Source: a virus. Taken from it: a DNA stretch of 64,000 nucleotides. Every line of letters begins with the position of its first letter. The stretch's first letter is position 1. Positions 1,190-41,685 of this stretch are shown piece by piece. The DNA is taken from positions 1-64,000 of the IMG/VR virus record IMGVR_UViG_3300013126_000031; one strand, 5' to 3'. Position numbers and translations under genes: made by a program. The notes beneath the pieces are model-generated. The model was not told the origin of the DNA. It saw nothing but the letters and a program-made list of their open reading frames with translations, and searched no databases.

Positions 1190-1192
1190 TTG

Positions 1193-1270
1193 TACAGCGT
1201 GTAGGACTCGAACCTACGCCCCATCCACCAGTTAAAACCAGCAGTGCTCTACCAGCTGAGCTAACGCCAT
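1193..1270 (-). tRNA. tRNA-Lys(TTT)-like with extended anticodon stem
   Basis: The acceptor ATGGCGT/ACGCTGT, the D-arm (GCTC, GAGC) and the T-arm (GTAGG, TTCGAGT, CCTAC) are sound. The anticodon arm is unusual: CTGCTGG can pair with CTGGTGG over 7 bp, leaving loop TTTTAA. TTT (Lys) is the most likely anticodon. The gene is about 5 nt longer than normal. CCA is not encoded. Confidence 0.6.
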
Positions 1271-15095: not shown

Positions 15096-15938
15096 CTATT
15101 TTAAAGAAAATTTAATAAAATTAACACCATTAGGACTTTTAAGACGTTTTTCTTTGAAAATAGATTTTAATTTATCTTTAATCGGGTTGGTAAAATTGGG
15201 TAATGATTCATTTTCAAACCAAATATTTCCATTTTCATCTTCATATGCAGTATTGTTTTCTAAAACAGAGAAACCAAAATGTTTAGCAACTGGACATTCT
15301 TCCTCAACAGCAATAGTCAATTCAGATAACTGATTTTGTACCAATTGTGGCATGTTAAAATCGATATCGATTGAGTGTGTAGAAAAGTCATCGATATTGT
15401 AAATTTTAGCATCATTATCCTTCAAATAAGAATAATCAACCCAATATGCTGGATTAGCTTTCAATTCTTCTTCAGTTTCAGTGTGTGGTGTAATTTTAAC
15501 ACCAAAAATAAAGAATGATTTAGGTAAGTTAGTAACACCAACACCTTTTTGAATATTAGCACCAGCCCACTCACCGTAAATGGTGATTGTATTTTTATGC
15601 GTGTCGATATTTTCATTTACCGCCACATCATGAAATAATCTCATGAATTCAACTTCATGTGAATGAGCAAAAAATGCAAACCCAGCATTATCTTTTTCTG
15701 GTGTGATGATATTCTCACGTGATTGAGCCCACATACCAGATGGCGCATTATATGAAACAGCAGCGTTAGTACCATGTATTTTCACAGTACCTTTGAATGC
15801 AATCGTTGGTTTTGGTAACGTTGGGTCATAGATTGCTTCTCCGTTATCATCTAAACCAACAAAATTATAATGTCTATTGATATTAGAAATTACTGTTCTA
15901 AATTGTTCAATAGATGGAAATTTAATCATTTTTTTCAT
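15096..15938 (-). CDS. rnlB: RNA ligase, T4 Rnl2 family
   Basis: A 280-residue nucleotidyltransferase with motif I at residues 51-58 (TVKIHGTN; K53 would be the adenylated lysine) and motif III-like IYGEWAG. This matches Rnl2-type ligases that seal 3'-OH/5'-phosphate nicks in RNA duplexes. It is followed by the homing endonuclease and preceded 10 nt upstream by the DNA ligase gene, forming a ligase pair. Confidence 0.9.
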   Translation of the reverse strand: MKKMIKFPSIEQFRTVISNINRHYNFVGLDDNGEAIYDPTLPKPTIAFKGTVKIHGTNAAVSYNAPSGMWAQSRENIITPEKDNAGFAFFAHSHEVEFMRLFHDVAVNENIDTHKNTITIYGEWAGANIQKGVGVTNLPKSFFIFGVKITPHTETEEELKANPAYWVDYSYLKDNDAKIYNIDDFSTHSIDIDFNMPQLVQNQLSELTIAVEEECPVAKHFGFSVLENNTAYEDENGNIWFENESLPNFTNPIKDKLKSIFKEKRLKSPNGVNFIKFSLK

Positions 15939-15947
15939 TTTTTTATT

Positions 15948-17342
15948 TTAAACAGTTAAACCTATTGCTGCATTTTGTATTTCAATACACTCGTCAAGTG
16001 AGTTAGCTTCTGATTTGTCATCTCTAAAGTGTTTAAACGCTGGATATAACAACGAGTAAGCACCAGTATGGTCAAAAGATAACCCAGAACACTTAACTTC
16101 AATAATTGTACCTAATAACTTATCTTGATTTTCTGTAATTTCAGTCATAAGTGCTTCAGTTAACCCTTGTGGTCTTGTTTTTAACTTACCACATGATGTT
16201 TCAGCATTAAAAGAACTGATTACATTCTCGTTTTTCGTACCTTTAGTACCATAATTAAACCCAGTTATAACCAAATCCAATGTTAATTCCAACTTCATCT
16301 TGATTTGATGTGTTGGTTTACCATCTTTCCATTCACCATCGTAAGCTTTTAAGATAGTCCCTTCTTCACCACGACCCAAAATCTCTTGGAAATGGTTCAT
16401 AGCTTCTTCATATGTGTTAACAACCGTACCCTCTACGATAGATACACGTGTTACATCGATTGCTTTTAACGCTCTGTTTAATTCAATAGCACGTTTGCTG
16501 TATGGTACAGTAGATTTAGCATCAAAATACTCATCAACACTAATTCTATCCCATACTGTATATCGTATTTTAGATAAAGCTTCATCAAAATCACCATGTT
16601 TTTCAACAAACGCTGATAATTTCTTTTCGTTTTCCTTATCAGTACGACTATCTCTCTTACCACAGATGTCAATTATAGATGCAATAATACCGTTTGACTC
16701 ATAACGTGGTATACCATCCATTGTTAACTCACCATTTAAGACACAATCCTCTAGTTGTGCAAGTTCTTCAGCAAATTTAGCACCAGTCACAATAGTAGGT
16801 TCACCTTGTCTTGACTCCAATTCAACCTCACCATTTCTAATAACAGCGTTACAGTAACGACCATCCATTTTTACTTGTGATATACCTTTACCACCTTTTT
16901 CAAAAATCTTACGTGCTTTTTTCTCATCAAATGATACAGCACCCATGTATGGTGTTTCTTCAATCAACCCTTTAAATAGTTTGTTGATAAAAGTTGTACC
17001 CATACCAATTTTACAATCTTTATCGATAATACGTTCAATGATATACGCATCATCAGCAGATACATTCTCTAACCAAATTGTTAACTTATCAATTGCATTC
17101 TGACCAGTAATATCACGGTTTGCAATTTCCATAAGCATACCCAACGCTTGTTCCAATGTCCAAGACACTTCATTATGTGTGTATTCTGGTACTCGTTTGA
17201 TGTAAAACTTAACTCGTTTAGAGTTAGCCATATAAAGTACTCGTCTTAACAACTCATTGTCAGTGTATTTCTTTAATACATCAATCTTAGCATTGTTACC
17301 ACTTGTTGATGCAATTTCGTCAAAGATTTCTTTAATTGTCAT
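15948..17342 (-). CDS. ATP-dependent DNA ligase (T4 gp30-like)
   Basis: 464 residues with motif I QVKMDGRYCN (K158 adenylated), ELTMDG as motif III-like, and a C-terminal EVKCSGLSFD with the OB-fold motif. Size and layout match T4-type ligases, which join Okazaki fragments and repair nicks. Promoter with -7 TACATTTG at about 17362-17371. It shares an operon with the Rnl2-like gene. Confidence 0.92.
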   Translation of the reverse strand: MTIKEIFDEIASTSGNNAKIDVLKKYTDNELLRRVLYMANSKRVKFYIKRVPEYTHNEVSWTLEQALGMLMEIANRDITGQNAIDKLTIWLENVSADDAYIIERIIDKDCKIGMGTTFINKLFKGLIEETPYMGAVSFDEKKARKIFEKGGKGISQVKMDGRYCNAVIRNGEVELESRQGEPTIVTGAKFAEELAQLEDCVLNGELTMDGIPRYESNGIIASIIDICGKRDSRTDKENEKKLSAFVEKHGDFDEALSKIRYTVWDRISVDEYFDAKSTVPYSKRAIELNRALKAIDVTRVSIVEGTVVNTYEEAMNHFQEILGRGEEGTILKAYDGEWKDGKPTHQIKMKLELTLDLVITGFNYGTKGTKNENVISSFNAETSCGKLKTRPQGLTEALMTEITENQDKLLGTIIEVKCSGLSFDHTGAYSLLYPAFKHFRDDKSEANSLDECIEIQNAAIGLTV

Positions 17343-18529: not shown

Positions 18530-19654
18530 TTATAACATCTTATATAACGTTTTATCGTCATAGTTAAACATAAAATCCTCAACAGATTCAATTTTACGGT
18601 CTTTCAACCCAAAATACAATCCAGTGAACATTTTCACATCATATTTCTCACAAACTTCAAAAACAGCTGCCGCATATTTTTTTTGTTCTTCTTTTGTTAC
18701 GTTTTTTGGTCTACGCAATTGTAATTCATCCCAAACAACATTCAATTTACCAACCAAAGCATCGTAAGATACTTTAAGACGTAAAAGTTCATCTTTTCTT
18801 TCTGGGAAAGTAGATGCAAATTCTTCTATCTCATTAGTTTTCACGATAGTCAATATATTGTGTTCAGCAGTTTTACCTTTCAAGTGGTGAACCGCAACAT
18901 ATGCTGGGTTTTTAACTTTAACACGATTGTCATTACCATCACGTACAACATACCCTTCTTCAGACCATGGCATACCTTCAAATGTTTTCAACAAGTGACC
19001 AATATTTGATGCGTTTATATCAAAAGATTTAACCAATGGTACACCTATTGATATAGCAACCATTTCTAAGTCTTTTCCAGACAACTCAACTAGTGTTTCT
19101 CTGTTTCTAACTGTCAACAATGTTGCAGATGATTCACCATGTGGTTTAACAACTATATTATATGGTGTAGTCAACTCAAAAACGTATATATAATCTTTAT
19201 TTAACAAACATTCGTTAAATGTATATTTGTTATTTAGAGTATCCCAAAACAAATCGTTAAATGTAGTACCATTTTTGTTGTTTACTTCACCTTCACCATT
19301 AGCAGTACCAGTAGTACCAGCATACCAAGTCATATCATGCCAGTCATAGTACACTTGTATCATAGTACCATCTAATTTTTCAAGTACTTGTGCTGTATTC
19401 CAATCTATTTTAGCAGCGTTTCCTTCTTCAGCGTTGAAGAATTTACGAAAAGCCAATGACATTACTTTCCATGTACCTTTTTCTAAGATGATTCCACGAC
19501 AATCTTGCATCTCTGGCAAAGCCATAAGAGTTGGAGATACTAATTGGTTATATTTTAGTAAAATTTTTGATGGGTAATGTTTACAAATTAAACTAAAATC
19601 ATTTATAGCTTTTTCCAAACCGTGTGTTCTTAAATAATTTTGTATAGCTAACAT
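18530..19654 (-). CDS. rnlA: RNA ligase, T4 Rnl1 family
   Basis: 374 residues with motif I LEKLDGTMIQ (K93) at the position known for T4 gp63/Rnl1, and a preceding CRGIILEKG segment as in that family. Rnl1 rejoins tRNA cut in the anticodon loop by host anticodon nucleases. Promoter with -7 box at about 19677-19685. Together with the kinase-phosphodiesterase at 20961 it would make a complete tRNA repair set. Confidence 0.9.
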   Translation of the reverse strand: MLAIQNYLRTHGLEKAINDFSLICKHYPSKILLKYNQLVSPTLMALPEMQDCRGIILEKGTWKVMSLAFRKFFNAEEGNAAKIDWNTAQVLEKLDGTMIQVYYDWHDMTWYAGTTGTANGEGEVNNKNGTTFNDLFWDTLNNKYTFNECLLNKDYIYVFELTTPYNIVVKPHGESSATLLTVRNRETLVELSGKDLEMVAISIGVPLVKSFDINASNIGHLLKTFEGMPWSEEGYVVRDGNDNRVKVKNPAYVAVHHLKGKTAEHNILTIVKTNEIEEFASTFPERKDELLRLKVSYDALVGKLNVVWDELQLRRPKNVTKEEQKKYAAAVFEVCEKYDVKMFTGLYFGLKDRKIESVEDFMFNYDDKTLYKML

Positions 19655-20765: not shown

Positions 20766-20964
20766 ACTTTGTTATTTTTAAATTAGAGTCAATGAAAATA
20801 TCCGCAATATTTAATATTTCTCTAACATGGAAAATCTCAGTTTTAACATCACAAAGAATGTTATTATCTGGAACAAATTTTATTTTGTAAAGGTTCCCTT
20901 CAATCCATAATACCTCAGCATATACTAACCCCCATCCTTTTAAATGTAATTTAACGTCACTCAT
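20746..20964 (-). CDS. Hypothetical protein, 72 aa
   Basis: MSDVKLHLKGWGLVYAEVLW suggests a small beta-barrel-like protein. It overlaps both neighbours, the RNA-repair enzyme upstream by 4 nt and the Nudix gene downstream, so all three are one operon. Confidence 0.6.
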   Translation of the reverse strand: MSDVKLHLKGWGLVYAEVLWIEGNLYKIKFVPDNNILCDVKTEIFHVREILNIADIFIDSNLKITKFERYDD

Positions 20965-21893
20965 TGTTTTTTGATTTCAGAAACAACTCCATTAACCATA
21001 AATTTCTTAATGGGTTGCCATTTTGTTATTTGATTACTCATTGCTGGTTTACCACCATCTGGATTAACCGCAATAGTAATGTGTGGTGTTTCATTTTTAG
21101 ATTGGTAACCACTAACCTTTACAGCCATAGCCATATCAGATAAACCTAATTCACCAACAGTTAAAGTAACTTGTTTACCTAAATCAGTTTTATCTTTAAG
21201 TTCACCCAAATTTATTGTCATATGATGAGCAATTACTTTCCACCCCTCTGGTATTCTATCACCAATCATATCTAACAATGTTGTTCTAGATTGATTATCC
21301 AACAATACACAAGAGTACAACACATCAGATTGTTTGTACATATCTTTCGAGTCTAAAACACTTTTAAGCGTAAGAGGACCTTGAGCTGTATGACTAGCTA
21401 TCATGGCTTCAATCTTTTCTAAAGGTACACCGTGTGCGTTTCTTTTAGCCAACTCAGCTGCCTCTAAACCAGCAGTACCTATATCGACAAATTTAATGTT
21501 GTTATCAGCATAACCCATTTCCAACGCAGCCACAATATAAGCTTTGGACTCATTTTGTTTTATATTTGTATTGTCTATGATTACTGGACTAATACCAGAT
21601 TTCATAGATGCAATAGCATTCTTTAAATTTGTTGAGTGAGCTCTACTTAATGGTGTAAAATCTTTAGATGCTATCATCTTAGCAAAAAATTCATTGTAAT
21701 CACCACCAGCTTCAATAACATCATCAGTCGAGTGTATTTTACCTTGACCAACAAGTGACTTAGCTTTTGTTGATTTTCCAGCACCTGGGATTCCACGCAT
21801 AACAATGAGTTGTTGATTAGGTTTTGTTACTGTAACACCTAGGATATTTTTGGACATAGATTCCCTTAATATTTGTTTAATATTTTCTTTCAT
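20961..21893 (-). CDS. Polynucleotide kinase fused to 2H cyclic phosphodiesterase
   Basis: Residues 30-180 are a P-loop kinase (MRGIPGAGKST, K40; IIDNTNIKQNES). Residues 195-310 have two HxT motifs, HHMTINLG at 223 and PHITIAV at 270, the signature of 2H phosphodiesterases such as the CPD domain of fungal tRNA ligase. The fusion can open a 2',3'-cyclic phosphate and phosphorylate a 5'-OH, which are the healing steps before Rnl1 sealing. The N-terminus MKENIKQILRESMS resembles a capsid-targeting peptide. Promoter -7 box at about 21896-21904. Confidence 0.85.
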   Translation of the reverse strand: MKENIKQILRESMSKNILGVTVTKPNQQLIVMRGIPGAGKSTKAKSLVGQGKIHSTDDVIEAGGDYNEFFAKMIASKDFTPLSRAHSTNLKNAIASMKSGISPVIIDNTNIKQNESKAYIVAALEMGYADNNIKFVDIGTAGLEAAELAKRNAHGVPLEKIEAMIASHTAQGPLTLKSVLDSKDMYKQSDVLYSCVLLDNQSRTTLLDMIGDRIPEGWKVIAHHMTINLGELKDKTDLGKQVTLTVGELGLSDMAMAVKVSGYQSKNETPHITIAVNPDGGKPAMSNQITKWQPIKKFMVNGVVSEIKKQ

Positions 21894-29593: not shown

Positions 29594-30709
29594 TCATTTT
29601 AAAAGTTTTTTAAAGTTATCTTTCTCAATACTTTGTATTGCTTTACCCAATTCTGGACCAGGTTTCAATCCCATTTTATCCATAACTTCTGGACCAGTAA
29701 CACTTAAACCAAATTTTAAAAACGCATCAACTAACTTTTCATTAATACCTTCTAATTTAGAAAATTTAGTTATTTGCTCTGGTGTTATACCAGAATGTTT
29801 TTGTGCTTTTTTAAGTATAACAGCTGTATCAACAGATAGTTTTAATAACCCAACTAAAAATACAACACCTTTAATTTCTTCGGCTGAGTATTTTAATGTG
29901 TTTAATTGTTTATTTAACATATCGATATCGTTATGCTTCAATAATGTTGCCAAAATTATAATTGGGTCATTATCCTCAATAAATCTTTTGTCAACTTTTA
30001 ACCCTTTAAAGACCCAATCAAATAATCCGTATTTGTCAATCATTTTTAAAAATGATTTAACTGATTTAGCTGATTTTATCCCTTTTAAAAATTCATCTCT
30101 AATTCTTTCACCAGATATACCTTCAAGACTTGCATCTTTTTTTAATGCAGCATCTGTTGATGGGTCTAGCTGATTTCCAAACCTACCAGCAAATCTTATC
30201 GCTCTAAGTATTCTAAGTCTGTCTTCGCCAAATCTATCTTCTGGTGAACCAACTGTTCTTACAACACCATTTTTAAGGTCTTCCACACCACCAACAAGGT
30301 CAACAACCTCTTGTGTATCTATATCATAAAATAAAGCGTTAATTGTTAAATCACGTCTTTTAACATCGCCTTCTATGTTTGTAAAAGACACAGCGTCTGG
30401 TCTTCTACCACCAGATAAATCATTTCTAAAAGTAGCTACTTCATACTCTCCCATATCAGTAAAAACATTGATAACACCAAAAGCTTTACCAGTTGGTAAA
30501 GTTTTAAGACCAGCTTTAGCCATCATTTCTTCAACCTTGTCTGGTATAGCATCTGTTGCCAAATCGTAGTCTTTAGGTTCTTTACCTAACAACGCATCTC
30601 TAACAGCACCACCAACAACAAATAATTTAAAACCATTATTTTTAAACACATTAGCTATTTCTAAAATGTCTTTAGGTATTGGTATATCAAATTTAATTCT
30701 CTTTTCCAT
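29594..30709 (-). CDS. cca: CCA-adding tRNA nucleotidyltransferase
   Basis: 371 residues. The N-terminal catalytic domain has LFVVGGAVRDALLG and KDYDLAT (DxD), followed by TFRND and RRDLTINALFYD, as in class II CCA-adding enzymes or poly(A) polymerases. Most phage tRNAs and the tmRNA here lack encoded CCA, which makes this enzyme directly useful. Host-type promoter at 30712-30746; it follows the FKBP terminator. Confidence 0.92.
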   Translation of the reverse strand: MEKRIKFDIPIPKDILEIANVFKNNGFKLFVVGGAVRDALLGKEPKDYDLATDAIPDKVEEMMAKAGLKTLPTGKAFGVINVFTDMGEYEVATFRNDLSGGRRPDAVSFTNIEGDVKRRDLTINALFYDIDTQEVVDLVGGVEDLKNGVVRTVGSPEDRFGEDRLRILRAIRFAGRFGNQLDPSTDAALKKDASLEGISGERIRDEFLKGIKSAKSVKSFLKMIDKYGLFDWVFKGLKVDKRFIEDNDPIIILATLLKHNDIDMLNKQLNTLKYSAEEIKGVVFLVGLLKLSVDTAVILKKAQKHSGITPEQITKFSKLEGINEKLVDAFLKFGLSVTGPEVMDKMGLKPGPELGKAIQSIEKDNFKKLLK

Positions 30710-34500: not shown

Positions 34501-34533
34501 AAAAACCCCCAGTAAAGCGACTTACTGAGGGTC
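34501..34533 (-). terminator. Terminator after tmRNA
   Basis: Minus-strand stem CCCTCAGTAAG / CTTTACTGGGGG followed by a T-run; about 50 nt after the tmRNA 3' end. Confidence 0.8.
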
Positions 34534-34582
34534 ATAATTTCATTTCTCGTGGCGTGTTGTTTGAGAATGAATCTGTTAGAAG

Positions 34583-34936
34583 TGGAGATAATGGGATTCG
34601 AACCCATGTGTTGAATATTCTTCGATGCTTTCTACATGTTTAGGTCATGATTTTCTAACCATCCGAAACTTTCCTTAATTTTATAGTGGTTTTGGTTCCA
34701 CTAGTATTCATACCATAGATGGTTTACCATCATCTCGTTAGTGGATTACCACTATCAGCAGTGTTAGGCAACTGCAAGCTCTCCGTTAGAAACGAATGTC
34801 GCTTCGTCAAGGAAATTTTCTGATACGATTAAATCGTTGTCATTTCTTGTTCTAATAGTATTTTTTAAAGTGCTTCCAATCTAGCACTACATGCTTACTA
34901 CCTACGACTATACCCAGTCAATACCGTCATATCCCC
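34583..34936 (-). ncRNA. ssrA: tmRNA (one-piece)
   Basis: The 354-nt RNA starts GGGGATATGACGGTATTGAC and ends with a T-arm (ATGGG-TTCGAAT-CCCAT), TATCTCC and discriminator A. GGGGATA pairs with TATCTCC. In the middle an open tag frame ends ...GELAVA-stop at 34764 and begins about NDNDLIVSENF near 34844, so the tag is long (up to about 27 residues). Several pseudoknot-type hairpins follow. CCA is not encoded. With host SmpB it would rescue stalled ribosomes and tag phage or host proteins. Confidence 0.9.
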
Positions 34937-35197: not shown

Positions 35198-35914
35198 TTA
35201 TTTTTTCTTTTTTGTTGTTATGATATGGTCAACAATACCATAAGCCAATGCTTCATCAGAATTTAACCATAAATCACGACTTGCATCTTCCATAACTTGT
35301 TTAGGGTCTTTATCAGTGTATTTACCTAACAACCCGAATAATAACTCGTTATATTTTTCACCCTCAGCAATTGAACGTCTGATGTCTTGGATATTACCTT
35401 GAGCACCAGTCGATACTTGGTGTAGCATAACTCTACTAAAACGCAGCGTATAACGTTTACCTTTTGTTCCAGCACCTAATAATATACTCCCCATACTTGC
35501 AGCCATACCAGTATTGATAGTGATGCAATCAGATGTGATGTAGTCCATTACGTCAACAATTGATAACCCAGATTTTACTGAACCACCTGGACTATCGACA
35601 TGTAATGTGATGTCTTTTCTTTCTAAATTATCTAAGAACATCAACTGTGCTTGTACAACTGTACTCATTCTGTCGTTAACTGGTCCAGCTAACCATATAA
35701 TTCTATCCATCATCATTCTGGAGAAAATATCCATCTGTGTCACTCTTAATTCTCTTTCTTCAAGAATGTATGGTGTTAATGACGCTGAAGGAACCATAAG
35801 TGATGCTTGAGAACCGTAAAGTTTTTCTTGCATTTGTTCCCATTGGTAAAAATCCGTTGAAGAAATCCCCATATGCTTAATAGCATAATCTTTAAATTCG
35901 TTAGTTAAATTCAT
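35198..35914 (-). CDS. clpP: ClpP-type serine protease
   Basis: Motifs for the catalytic triad are clear: GMAASMGSILL (Ser), RVMLHQVSTG (His) and DASRDLWLN (Asp), with HVDSPGGSV before them. Start taken at 35914 (MNLTNEFKDYAIKHMG), directly behind the upstream stop; the frame is open 13 codons further. A phage ClpP could work as prohead protease or with host ClpX/ClpA, and it may degrade tmRNA-tagged proteins. Confidence 0.92.
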   Translation of the reverse strand: MNLTNEFKDYAIKHMGISSTDFYQWEQMQEKLYGSQASLMVPSASLTPYILEERELRVTQMDIFSRMMMDRIIWLAGPVNDRMSTVVQAQLMFLDNLERKDITLHVDSPGGSVKSGLSIVDVMDYITSDCITINTGMAASMGSILLGAGTKGKRYTLRFSRVMLHQVSTGAQGNIQDIRRSIAEGEKYNELLFGLLGKYTDKDPKQVMEDASRDLWLNSDEALAYGIVDHIITTKKKK

Positions 35915-35915
35915 A

Positions 35916-36170
35916 TTATTGTATTTTTCCATCTTTTTTAATAACACACTCACCAGACATCATTAAAAATTCATATCTGTTTAATGTTTCTAATTTATCA
36001 TCAGCTTCTGTCAATGCTGCTAAAGCTTCTTCAGCGTTTTTATAATAATCATCAGTTGAATGGTCACCAATACCTACTGAATGGTGAGATAACAATTGAA
36101 GAGTTAATAACGCTTTTTGTCTTTGAGCTTCTATCGATGCTCTTAACATTTGTTTTAATGGTTTATTCAT
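35916..36170 (-). CDS. Hypothetical protein, 84 aa
   Basis: MNKPLKQMLRASIEAQRQKA, helical throughout except a C-terminal hairpin. Directly upstream of clpP with stop and start adjacent. Function unknown. Confidence 0.65.
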   Translation of the reverse strand: MNKPLKQMLRASIEAQRQKALLTLQLLSHHSVGIGDHSTDDYYKNAEEALAALTEADDKLETLNRYEFLMMSGECVIKKDGKIQ

Positions 36171-40245: not shown

Positions 40246-41685
40246 TTAGATTGTTACTGGTGAGTAACGCTCAGAGTTGATGACACTCAACATCATTGAT
40301 ATTGGTGATAAATCTCTTCCAGCTAACAAGTTTGTTAATAAAGAAGGTGAAAAACCACTAACTAAACAAGTACCATTCGTGTCAAAGTGTACTGGCTTGT
40401 TGTTATCGCCTCTTGATTGGATGTTCCAATATACAACTTTTGGTGTTTTGTATCCAGCCTCAGCGTACATTGACTCAATCATTTTTTGAGCAGTTGGGTT
40501 CCAACCTCTACCTCTTACAGCAGAATTGAACTCCATGTCAGACAAGATTAAAATCATTGTCGGCATCTCTGATTGTGGCACGTTAGACTCTTTAGCTTTT
40601 TTAAGGATTAACTTAAATACAGCTTCCAAGTTTGTTGACATATCCCAATCAGCTCTTTGAAGTTGGTTGTAACGCTCGTTCAAGCTACCTTTCAAGATTT
40701 GTAATTTTGGACTTTCAGAGAAAGTCACAAAAGCATCTTGGAAAGGACCTACGTTTCTTTCAGAGATGTATAATCCCAAAGAGATTGCTACATCCATACA
40801 AGTAACGTTAGGGTTACCACCAGCTGGGCATGACATTGACCCAGAAACGTCAACTACTGGTAATACATACTCTTCGTTAGTAGCCATGTAGTTTGGTAAT
40901 GCTTTCCATTGCTCGTTAGCACCTCTAGCATTACCATACTTCAAGTTTTTTACAATGTCATATGGGTACACCGCTCCAGCGTTAATCTTAGTTTCACCTT
41001 TTTCAAGAGAAGCTAAATAAGCTTGGAATCTCTCTAAGTCGTTCTTAGAGAACGCTTTCATGTAGTCACTCATTGCTTTTGATGGCAATTTAGAGTACTC
41101 AATCTTAGAGTATTCTCTAGCACACATTAATTGCTCAACTGTGTTAGAGTTTTCTGACAATAACTTACGGTATTGTTTTGGTGTAAGACCCAAATGTTTT
41201 CTCAACACATTTGCCCATCTTTTTTTCTCACGGTTAGATACGTTTGGACGTGGCATCCATTTAGCTGCTAATCCATCTTTTCTATCTAACGCATCAGAGA
41301 TTAAGTTCAACGCTTTAGTTTGCAATGGTGTACCAACAAGAGTTAGTAAATCATCCCAACGACCATACTCGTTGAACAAATGTAAGTTCTTACCTAAAGT
41401 CTCAGTACGGTTTTCAGCCAAGTACGCAACAATATCTCTAAAGATTTGTCTTTCTCCAGCTCCACCTCTGATATCACGAGCCCAAAATAACAATTTCATT
41501 GCATGTAACGGGTTCTCAGCAAATGCTTTCGTAAAAGCATTGATAAGTCTTTGCTTATCTTGACCTCTCATCGCACCAATTTGGAAGAATAAATCTACAC
41601 AGTGGTTCAAAGATGATGAGTTTGTTGCCATTCCGTTTTCAGTTAACGAATCTGCTGTTTGCATTGCTTTTAAAAATGTGCTCAT
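40246..41685 (-). CDS. DUF2828/TROVE-like helical repeat plus vWA protein (Ro-like)
   Basis: 479 residues. The N-terminal 270 are helical repeats with ALKLLFWARDIRGG-type sequence (MKLLFWARDIRGGAGERQIF) and LFNEYGRWDDLLTL, as in DUF2828 and related Ro60/TROVE proteins. The C-terminal 200 form a vWA domain with MIDAS motif PVVDVSGSMS. Ro proteins bind Y RNA and misfolded RNAs and work with exonucleases. Strong host-type promoter at 41720-41752. Confidence 0.8.
   Translation of the reverse strand: MSTFLKAMQTADSLTENGMATNSSSLNHCVDLFFQIGAMRGQDKQRLINAFTKAFAENPLHAMKLLFWARDIRGGAGERQIFRDIVAYLAENRTETLGKNLHLFNEYGRWDDLLTLVGTPLQTKALNLISDALDRKDGLAAKWMPRPNVSNREKKRWANVLRKHLGLTPKQYRKLLSENSNTVEQLMCAREYSKIEYSKLPSKAMSDYMKAFSKNDLERFQAYLASLEKGETKINAGAVYPYDIVKNLKYGNARGANEQWKALPNYMATNEEYVLPVVDVSGSMSCPAGGNPNVTCMDVAISLGLYISERNVGPFQDAFVTFSESPKLQILKGSLNERYNQLQRADWDMSTNLEAVFKLILKKAKESNVPQSEMPTMILILSDMEFNSAVRGRGWNPTAQKMIESMYAEAGYKTPKVVYWNIQSRGDNNKPVHFDTNGTCLVSGFSPSLLTNLLAGRDLSPISMMLSVINSERYSPVTI

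What the first reader, a model, noticed from the sequence alone, without database searches (positions are those of the whole stretch)
34583..34936. Phage-encoded one-piece tmRNA with a long tag
Both tRNA-like ends pair, the T-arm is perfect and a tag ending in ELAVA is open. The tag frame may encode up to about 27 residues, much longer than the usual 8-15. A phage tmRNA together with phage ClpP and CCA enzyme suggests that the phage runs its own ribosome rescue and tagging.
Basis: partly seen in the sequence, partly recalled or inferred. Interest (0 to 1): 0.8.

Follow-up and report, generated by a model that had tools for sequence, protein, structure and literature searches.

The report
Phage tmRNA with a long tag
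A large virus of Bacteroidota bacteria carries its own gene for tmRNA, the RNA that frees stuck ribosomes and labels the unfinished protein for destruction; its label is 25 amino acids long instead of the 9-10 usual in these bacteria, is conserved across dozens of related viruses, and sits next to the virus's own shredding enzyme (ClpP).

Summary
The tmRNA is real: minus strand, 34582-34936, found by ARAGORN and by Rfam RF00023 above its curated threshold. Homology with 51 distinct tmRNAs of related IMG/VR phage contigs moves the resume codon five codons upstream of ARAGORN's call: the tag is DNDLIVSENFLDEATFVSNGELAVA, 25 residues (25-26 in relatives). It evolves as protein (53% synonymous against 26% with columns shuffled) and A at -4 is invariant. 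Acceptor stem, T-arm and P2 show covariation; G3-U70, the alanine identity pair, never changes. Sampled Bacteroidota tags have 9-10 residues and end A[LM]AA. In relatives the tmRNA lies just downstream of a catalytically intact Bacteroidota-type ClpP. The eight relatives of 274-380 kb also encode a ClpC-like unfoldase (8 of 8), a separate T4-type prohead protease (8 of 8, so ClpP is probably not the capsid protease) and often SmpB (5 of 8). Most likely function: phage-run ribosome rescue whose extended tag feeds a phage Clp protease. The destination of the tag is inferred, nothing shows expression, and SmpB and ClpC are not on this 64-kb fragment. Phage tmRNAs and phage SmpB were known; the long conserved tag with Clp linkage appears to be a new variant.

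The parts
34582..34936 (-). one-piece tmRNA gene
   Evidence: ARAGORN; Rfam RF00023 (34580-34936)
34767..34841 (-). tag reading frame, 25 codons, DNDLIVSENFLDEATFVSNGELAVA; resume codon GAC at 34839-34841
   Evidence: homology with 51 relatives, A at -4, codon-level selection
34764..34766 (-). tag stop codon TAA
34930..34936 (-). acceptor stem, 5' strand GGGGAUA
34584..34590 (-). acceptor stem, 3' strand UAUCUCC, with U70 opposite G3; discriminator A at 34583; CCA not encoded
34591..34607 (-). T-arm with loop UUCGAAU
   Evidence: 100% of cells paired in 35 sequences
34910..34916 (-). P2, 5' strand UGGGUAU (3' strand AUAUUCA at 34612-34618)
34854..34888 (-). pseudoknot PK1 upstream of the tag (AGUGCU/AGCACU; GAU.GG/CUAUU)
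   Evidence: 98% paired in both stems; stem 2 varies on one side only
34718..34754 (-). two covarying hairpins downstream of the tag
   Evidence: helices 5 and 6
34647..34662 (-). last hairpin (PK4 region)
   Evidence: weaker, 69% of cells paired
34504..34533 (-). terminator-like hairpin downstream of the tmRNA
   Evidence: 13 pairs followed by T-run; consensus scan only
35198..35953 (-). ClpP peptidase, upstream neighbour on the same strand; start probably ATG at 35932 or 35914
   Evidence: PF00574 186 bits; triad intact; linkage in relatives
29594..30709 (-). CCA-adding enzyme / tRNA nucleotidyltransferase
   Evidence: PF01743, phrog_2244; tmRNA and 17 of 19 tRNAs lack encoded CCA

Best explanation
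This is a functional phage tmRNA from a lineage of large, T4-like phages of Bacteroidota. It is processed, completed with CCA, charged with alanine, and with SmpB (phage-made in most large relatives, otherwise the host's) it enters stalled ribosomes. Translation resumes at GAC and adds a 25-residue tag, DNDLIVSENFLDEATFVSNGELAVA, after the alanine carried by the tmRNA. The tag has diverged from the short host tag (GENNYALAA type). It most likely marks the protein for a phage-encoded Clp machine, a ClpC-like unfoldase with the neighbouring ClpP. Shown by sequence: tmRNA identity, tag frame, selection on the tag, ClpP linkage, and the gene set in relatives. Inferred: expression, charging, tagging, and delivery to phage ClpC-ClpP rather than to host proteases.
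For: tmRNA called by two methods. 51 distinct homologues with tags of 25-26 residues. Seven of eight tested helices show two-sided changes (the exception is PK1 stem 2): 209 cells against 59.5 in shuffles, 92.5% paired against 43-49% when slid. G3-U70 invariant. Tag synonymous fraction 0.53 against a column-permuted mean of 0.26, 0 of 200 permutations as high; no stops in frame, stops in 32-33 of 34 sequences in the other frames. ClpP upstream on the same strand, 54-2000 nt away, in relatives. SmpB in 9 of 40 records, 5 of the 8 over 270 kb. ClpC-like protein in 8 of those 8, with VGF/MGF in the six full-length ORFs read, aligned with the VGF of B. subtilis ClpC in the one aligned. Separate T4-type prohead protease in 8 of 8. 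Bacteroidota tmRNAs: 64 of 65 tags have 9-10 residues. Nearest bacterial ClpPs are Bacteroidota.
Against: No expression or biochemical data. SmpB and ClpC are absent from this fragment. Record G023 (380 kb) has tmRNA without SmpB, and G017 (345 kb) has ClpC and ClpP without tmRNA or SmpB, so the modules are separable and ClpC-ClpP must have other substrates. ClpC is not linked to the tmRNA. The C-terminus (AVA, AFA, ALA) departs from the LAA end that ClpX reads in E. coli. A few relatives have altered T-loops or a non-A discriminator.
Confidence: 0.6

Rival explanations
1. Phage tmRNA that feeds the host's proteases: it rescues ribosomes as a reinforcement of the host system, the tag is degraded by host ClpXP, and the phage ClpC-ClpP serves other purposes.
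For: ClpC and ClpP also occur in records without tmRNA (G017). The tag still ends in small hydrophobic residues.
Against: The tag lost the host ending and gained 15 conserved residues that a host-directed degron would not need; ClpP is linked to the tmRNA.
Confidence: 0.25
2. The long tag is not mainly a degradation signal: it binds another partner, or protects rescued phage proteins from host ssrA proteolysis, so that the phage frees ribosomes without sending products to the host protease.
For: The most conserved part of the tag is the internal [SD]ENFL core, not only the C-terminus; the end differs from the host tag.
Against: The C-terminal GE[LV]A-A motif is conserved too, and a protease gene is the neighbour.
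Confidence: 0.12
3. ARAGORN's version is right: translation resumes at GTA and the tag has 20 residues.
For: ARAGORN output for this sequence.
Against: In homologues ARAGORN itself starts at the aligned GGC/GAC codon; the five codons in question are conserved; A at -4 is invariant at the upstream start.
Confidence: 0.04
4. Passive remnant: a captured host ssrA gene, a fragment at an integration site, or a decaying tmRNA without function.
For: ssrA is a frequent prophage integration site (noted in PMC9004378); a few relatives have altered T-loops.
Against: Complete gene in many large T4-like phage contigs, compensatory changes, selection on the tag, conserved position.
Confidence: 0.03

Closest known systems
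Bacterial one-piece tmRNA (Rfam RF00023), Bacteroidota type with tags such as GENNYALAA and ADDYSYAMAA
   Same: tRNA-like domain, G3-U70, P2, PK1, A at -4 of the resume codon, first tag residue often G or D, similar overall length
   Different: Tag of 25-26 residues instead of 9-10, conserved [SD]ENFL core, end ELAVA/EVALA instead of YALAA/YAMAA
Phage-encoded tmRNAs: phage G and mycobacteriophages (PMC4131195), Melnitz and 402 phage genomes (PMC9004378), huge phages (PMC7162821)
   Same: tmRNA in a phage genome; huge phages are also reported to encode SmpB
   Different: The passages read describe no lineage-conserved long tag, no ClpP neighbour and no ClpC partner
Lak phage tmRNA (Prevotella phage Lak-C1, MK250029)
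   Same: Bacteroidota host; phage genome with tmRNA, SmpB and ClpP
   Different: Short tag DDEIDFRMAA by homology; tmRNA about 55 kb from the ClpP gene
Mycoplasma extended ssrA tag read by Lon (Gur and Sauer 2008; Ge and Karzai 2009; cited in PMC3985003, originals not held)
   Same: Extended tag whose end changed from ALAA to AFA; similar length of about 27 residues (own knowledge)

Membership tests
tmRNA (RF00023) | covariance-model score above gathering threshold, full length | tested here: met
   65 bits against 47, model positions 1-374
tmRNA (RF00023) | tRNA-like domain: 7-bp acceptor stem, T-arm, G3-U70 | tested here: met
tmRNA (RF00023) | P2 and PK1 | tested here: met
   P2 96.7% and PK1 98% of cells paired
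tmRNA (RF00023) | downstream pseudoknots PK2-PK4 | tested here: inconclusive
   two covarying hairpins and one weak one; second stems not resolved
tmRNA (RF00023) | resume codon with A at -4 and open tag frame ending in a stop | tested here: met
tmRNA (RF00023) | transcription, processing, alanylation and tagging | not testable with these tools
   needs infected cells or in vitro assays
ClpP peptidase (as opposed to head-maturation protease) | full-length ClpP match and Ser-His-Asp triad | tested here: met
   it is below NCBIfam's curated cut-offs for named ClpP equivalogs
ClpP peptidase (as opposed to head-maturation protease) | another protein serves as prohead protease in the same genomes | tested here: met
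   Peptidase_S77 in 8 of 8 related records over 270 kb; the window is a fragment without it
Phage trans-translation plus Clp module (proposed here) | SmpB in the same genome | tested here: inconclusive
   not on the 64-kb window; 5 of 8 relatives over 270 kb, 9 of 40 records in all
Phage trans-translation plus Clp module (proposed here) | ClpC-type unfoldase with ClpP-docking loop in the same genome | tested here: inconclusive
   none recognised on the window; ClpC-like protein in 8 of 8 relatives over 270 kb; VGF/MGF in the six full-length ORFs read; G003 gene interrupted by an intein, loop not seen; G009 not read

The most novel reading that the evidence does not exclude
Large Bacteroidota phages run a private protein quality-control pathway: phage tmRNA and SmpB attach a phage-specific 25-residue degron that only phage ClpC-ClpP reads, so that the fate of rescued proteins is uncoupled from the host's ssrA proteolysis.
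Probability: 0.35. Interest if true: 0.85.

Novelty: new variant of a known kind. Interest (0 to 1): 0.58.

Why it matters
If right, a virus carries a complete route for ribosome rescue and protein destruction with its own degron, which makes it testable why phages bring a tmRNA at all. It would be a second case, after Mycoplasma, of an ssrA tag evolving towards a different protease, and would give a new degron-protease pair to study. Independently of that, it shows that ARAGORN starts the tag too late, picks another frame, or misses the gene for many phage tmRNAs.

Tried and rejected
(1) blastn of the tmRNA against named phages: no match. (2) ARAGORN's 20-residue tag: rejected, because the same tool starts at the homologous upstream codon in relatives, the five upstream codons are conserved, and A at -4 fits the upstream start. 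(3) A start well before GAC: many relatives have an in-frame TAA two codons upstream. (4) ClpP as head-maturation protease, as PHROGs labels it: not favoured, since a T4-type prohead protease is present separately in large relatives. (5) ClpX as partner: no ClpX zinc-finger domain in 13 records. (6) Lon as partner: none in 8 phage records. (7) tmRNA in the 634-642 kb phages LR745206 and LR756502, which have ClpP, SmpB and ClpC-like genes: none near ClpP and none above the Rfam threshold. (8) Library searches for a paper on this combination found none, but only open-licence papers are held. (9) The Mycoplasma long-tag papers were not held. (10) An alignment call with guessed ClpP coordinates failed and was replaced by scripted ORF calls.

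Full report
What is there. The window is a 64-kb piece of a phage contig (virus record of 64,204 bases) with a tail-tube-like protein, a T4-type sigma factor and an SbcC/gp46-like protein. ARAGORN finds 19 tRNAs and one tmRNA, the latter on the minus strand at 34582-34936. Rfam's tmRNA model matches it from end to end at 65 bits, above the curated 47. The sequence shows a 7-bp acceptor stem with G3-U70, a canonical T-loop, discriminator A and no encoded CCA. A terminator-like hairpin lies about 50 bases downstream.

The tag. ARAGORN reads VSENFLDEATFVSNGELAVA (20 residues). In phages that encode a relative of the neighbouring ClpP, ARAGORN reads tags such as GNDFVVSENFLTEAACSFAGELAVA and DNDFIVSENFLDEAVYSFAGELAVA. 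A profile search recovered 51 distinct tmRNAs; the homologous frame in the window begins five codons earlier, giving DNDLIVSENFLDEATFVSNGELAVA (25 residues). At this start the base at -4 is A in 49 of 51. The two exceptions (L183, L228) were placed one codon too early by my pattern; read one codon later they also have A at -4 and tags of 26. L236 is the most divergent member (27). The stretch from -6 to +1 is known to position tag translation (PMC3985003). Many relatives have an in-frame TAA two codons upstream, so the frame cannot be much longer. In 34 relatives with 25-codon tags the frame has no stop, while the other two frames have stops in 32-33 of them. The synonymous share of single-base codon differences is 0.56 in frame against 0.19-0.23 in the other frames; on 32 distinct tags it is 0.53 against 0.26 on average with columns permuted (maximum 0.43 in 200). 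Related sequences are not independent, so this is a strong tendency and not an exact probability. The tag is therefore translated and selected along its length.

The RNA. On an alignment of 35 sequences I tested a hand-specified structure with eight helices: 92.5% of cells pair, against 80% in shuffles and 43-49% with partners slid; 31 pairs show changes on both sides. P2, PK1 stem 1, the T-stem and two hairpins after the tag are well supported. PK1 stem 2 is 98% paired but shows only one-sided changes. The last hairpin is paired in only 69% of cells, probably because that region is hard to align. The second stems of the downstream pseudoknots were not resolved. The acceptor stem changes in a compensatory way at positions 4-7 while G3-U70 never changes: the script counted 49 of 51, and in L235 and L240 it lost the first base. 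A few relatives have a non-A discriminator or altered T-loops (L141, L164, L166), which may be decay or variation in those lineages.

Compared with hosts. Of 65 bacterial tmRNAs, five from named Bacteroidota genomes and sixty from the phylum of Flavobacterium (some genomes sampled twice), 64 have ARAGORN tags of 9-10 residues, mostly GENNYALAA-like or ADDYSYAMAA-like; the one of 14 looks like a miscall. The phage tag is about 2.5 times longer and has another C-terminus.

The neighbours. ClpP lies directly upstream on the same strand, and this order recurs in relatives (gap 54-2000 nt; later profile hits add more). The protein matches ClpP over its length, including an N-terminal part shared with NCBIfam NF011091, and keeps the Ser-His-Asp triad. 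PHROGs files such proteins as head maturation proteases, but all eight relatives over 270 kb also carry a T4-type prohead protease, so ClpP is more likely a true Clp peptidase.

The rest of the pathway is seen in relatives, not in this fragment. SmpB occurs in 9 of 40 records and in 5 of the 8 over 270 kb, above NCBIfam cut-offs in the two tested; all nine SmpB records also have a tmRNA. A ~830-residue AAA+ protein occurs in 8 of 8. The one compared matches B. subtilis ClpC better than ClpB (755 against 653 bits), and its VGF aligns with the VGF of ClpC, known as the ClpP-docking loop (role from general knowledge). VGF or MGF is present in the six full-length ORFs read. In G003 the D2 half is interrupted by an intein and the loop was not seen. 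No ClpX zinc finger and no Lon was found. G003, G005, G008, G026 and G029 have all four genes; G023 lacks SmpB, and G017 lacks both tmRNA and SmpB. G009 resembles G008 closely in these genes and may be a fragment of nearly the same phage. Completeness of the records is not known.

Mechanism. Best supported: rescue of stalled ribosomes by an alanine-charged phage tmRNA with phage or host SmpB, adding a long phage-specific tag. That the tag is read by phage ClpC-ClpP is an inference from gene content, linkage and the divergence of the tag. Mycoplasma, where an extended tag with an AFA end goes with loss of ClpXP and reading by Lon, is the nearest precedent (PMC3985003; the length of that tag is from my own knowledge). 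ClpC and ClpP also occur without tmRNA, so they must have other substrates.

Novelty. Phage tmRNAs are known (PMC4131195; 402 phage genomes in PMC9004378), and huge phages were reported with tmRNA and SmpB (PMC7162821). In Lak-C1 the tmRNA has a short tag by homology. I found no report of a lineage-conserved long tag with ClpP linkage and a ClpC partner; the library holds open-licence papers only. I rate it a new variant of a known kind.

Noticed in passing
window 11169-12476 (-): Protein with a PARP-type ADP-ribosyltransferase catalytic domain (PF00644, 95 bits), unexpected in a phage.
   Followed up: no
window 7690-8883, 15096-15938, 15948-17342, 18530-19654, 20961-21893 (-): RlaP, two RNA ligases, a DNA ligase and a polynucleotide-kinase-like protein: an RNA/tRNA repair set beside many tRNAs.
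   Followed up: no
window 1192-1270 (-): tRNA called with a four-base anticodon (ttta), also matched by the Rfam tRNA model: a possible frameshift-type tRNA or a miscall.
   Followed up: no
L284 1933-3594 (G003, 362 kb): The ClpC-like gene carries an intein splicing domain within its D2 ATPase part (PF14890).
   Followed up: partly
G023 (380 kb): tmRNAs at 82619-82990 and 327939-328335; ClpPs at 81501 and 220177: One phage record with two different tmRNAs and two ClpPs; the second tag reads GNILENATVGHFVAEDAAVVA.
   Followed up: partly
MK250029.1 182229-182625 (L477): Lak-C1 has a tmRNA that ARAGORN misses; its tag by homology is DDEIDFRMAA.
   Followed up: partly
L023, L027, L090, L098, L105, L107, L122 and others: Viral tmRNAs outside this ClpP family also get ARAGORN tags of 21-31 residues, so long tags may be common in phages.
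   Followed up: no
window 40246-41685 (-): DUF2828/DUF7788 protein of unknown function with relatives in 682 phage records of many hosts.
   Followed up: no
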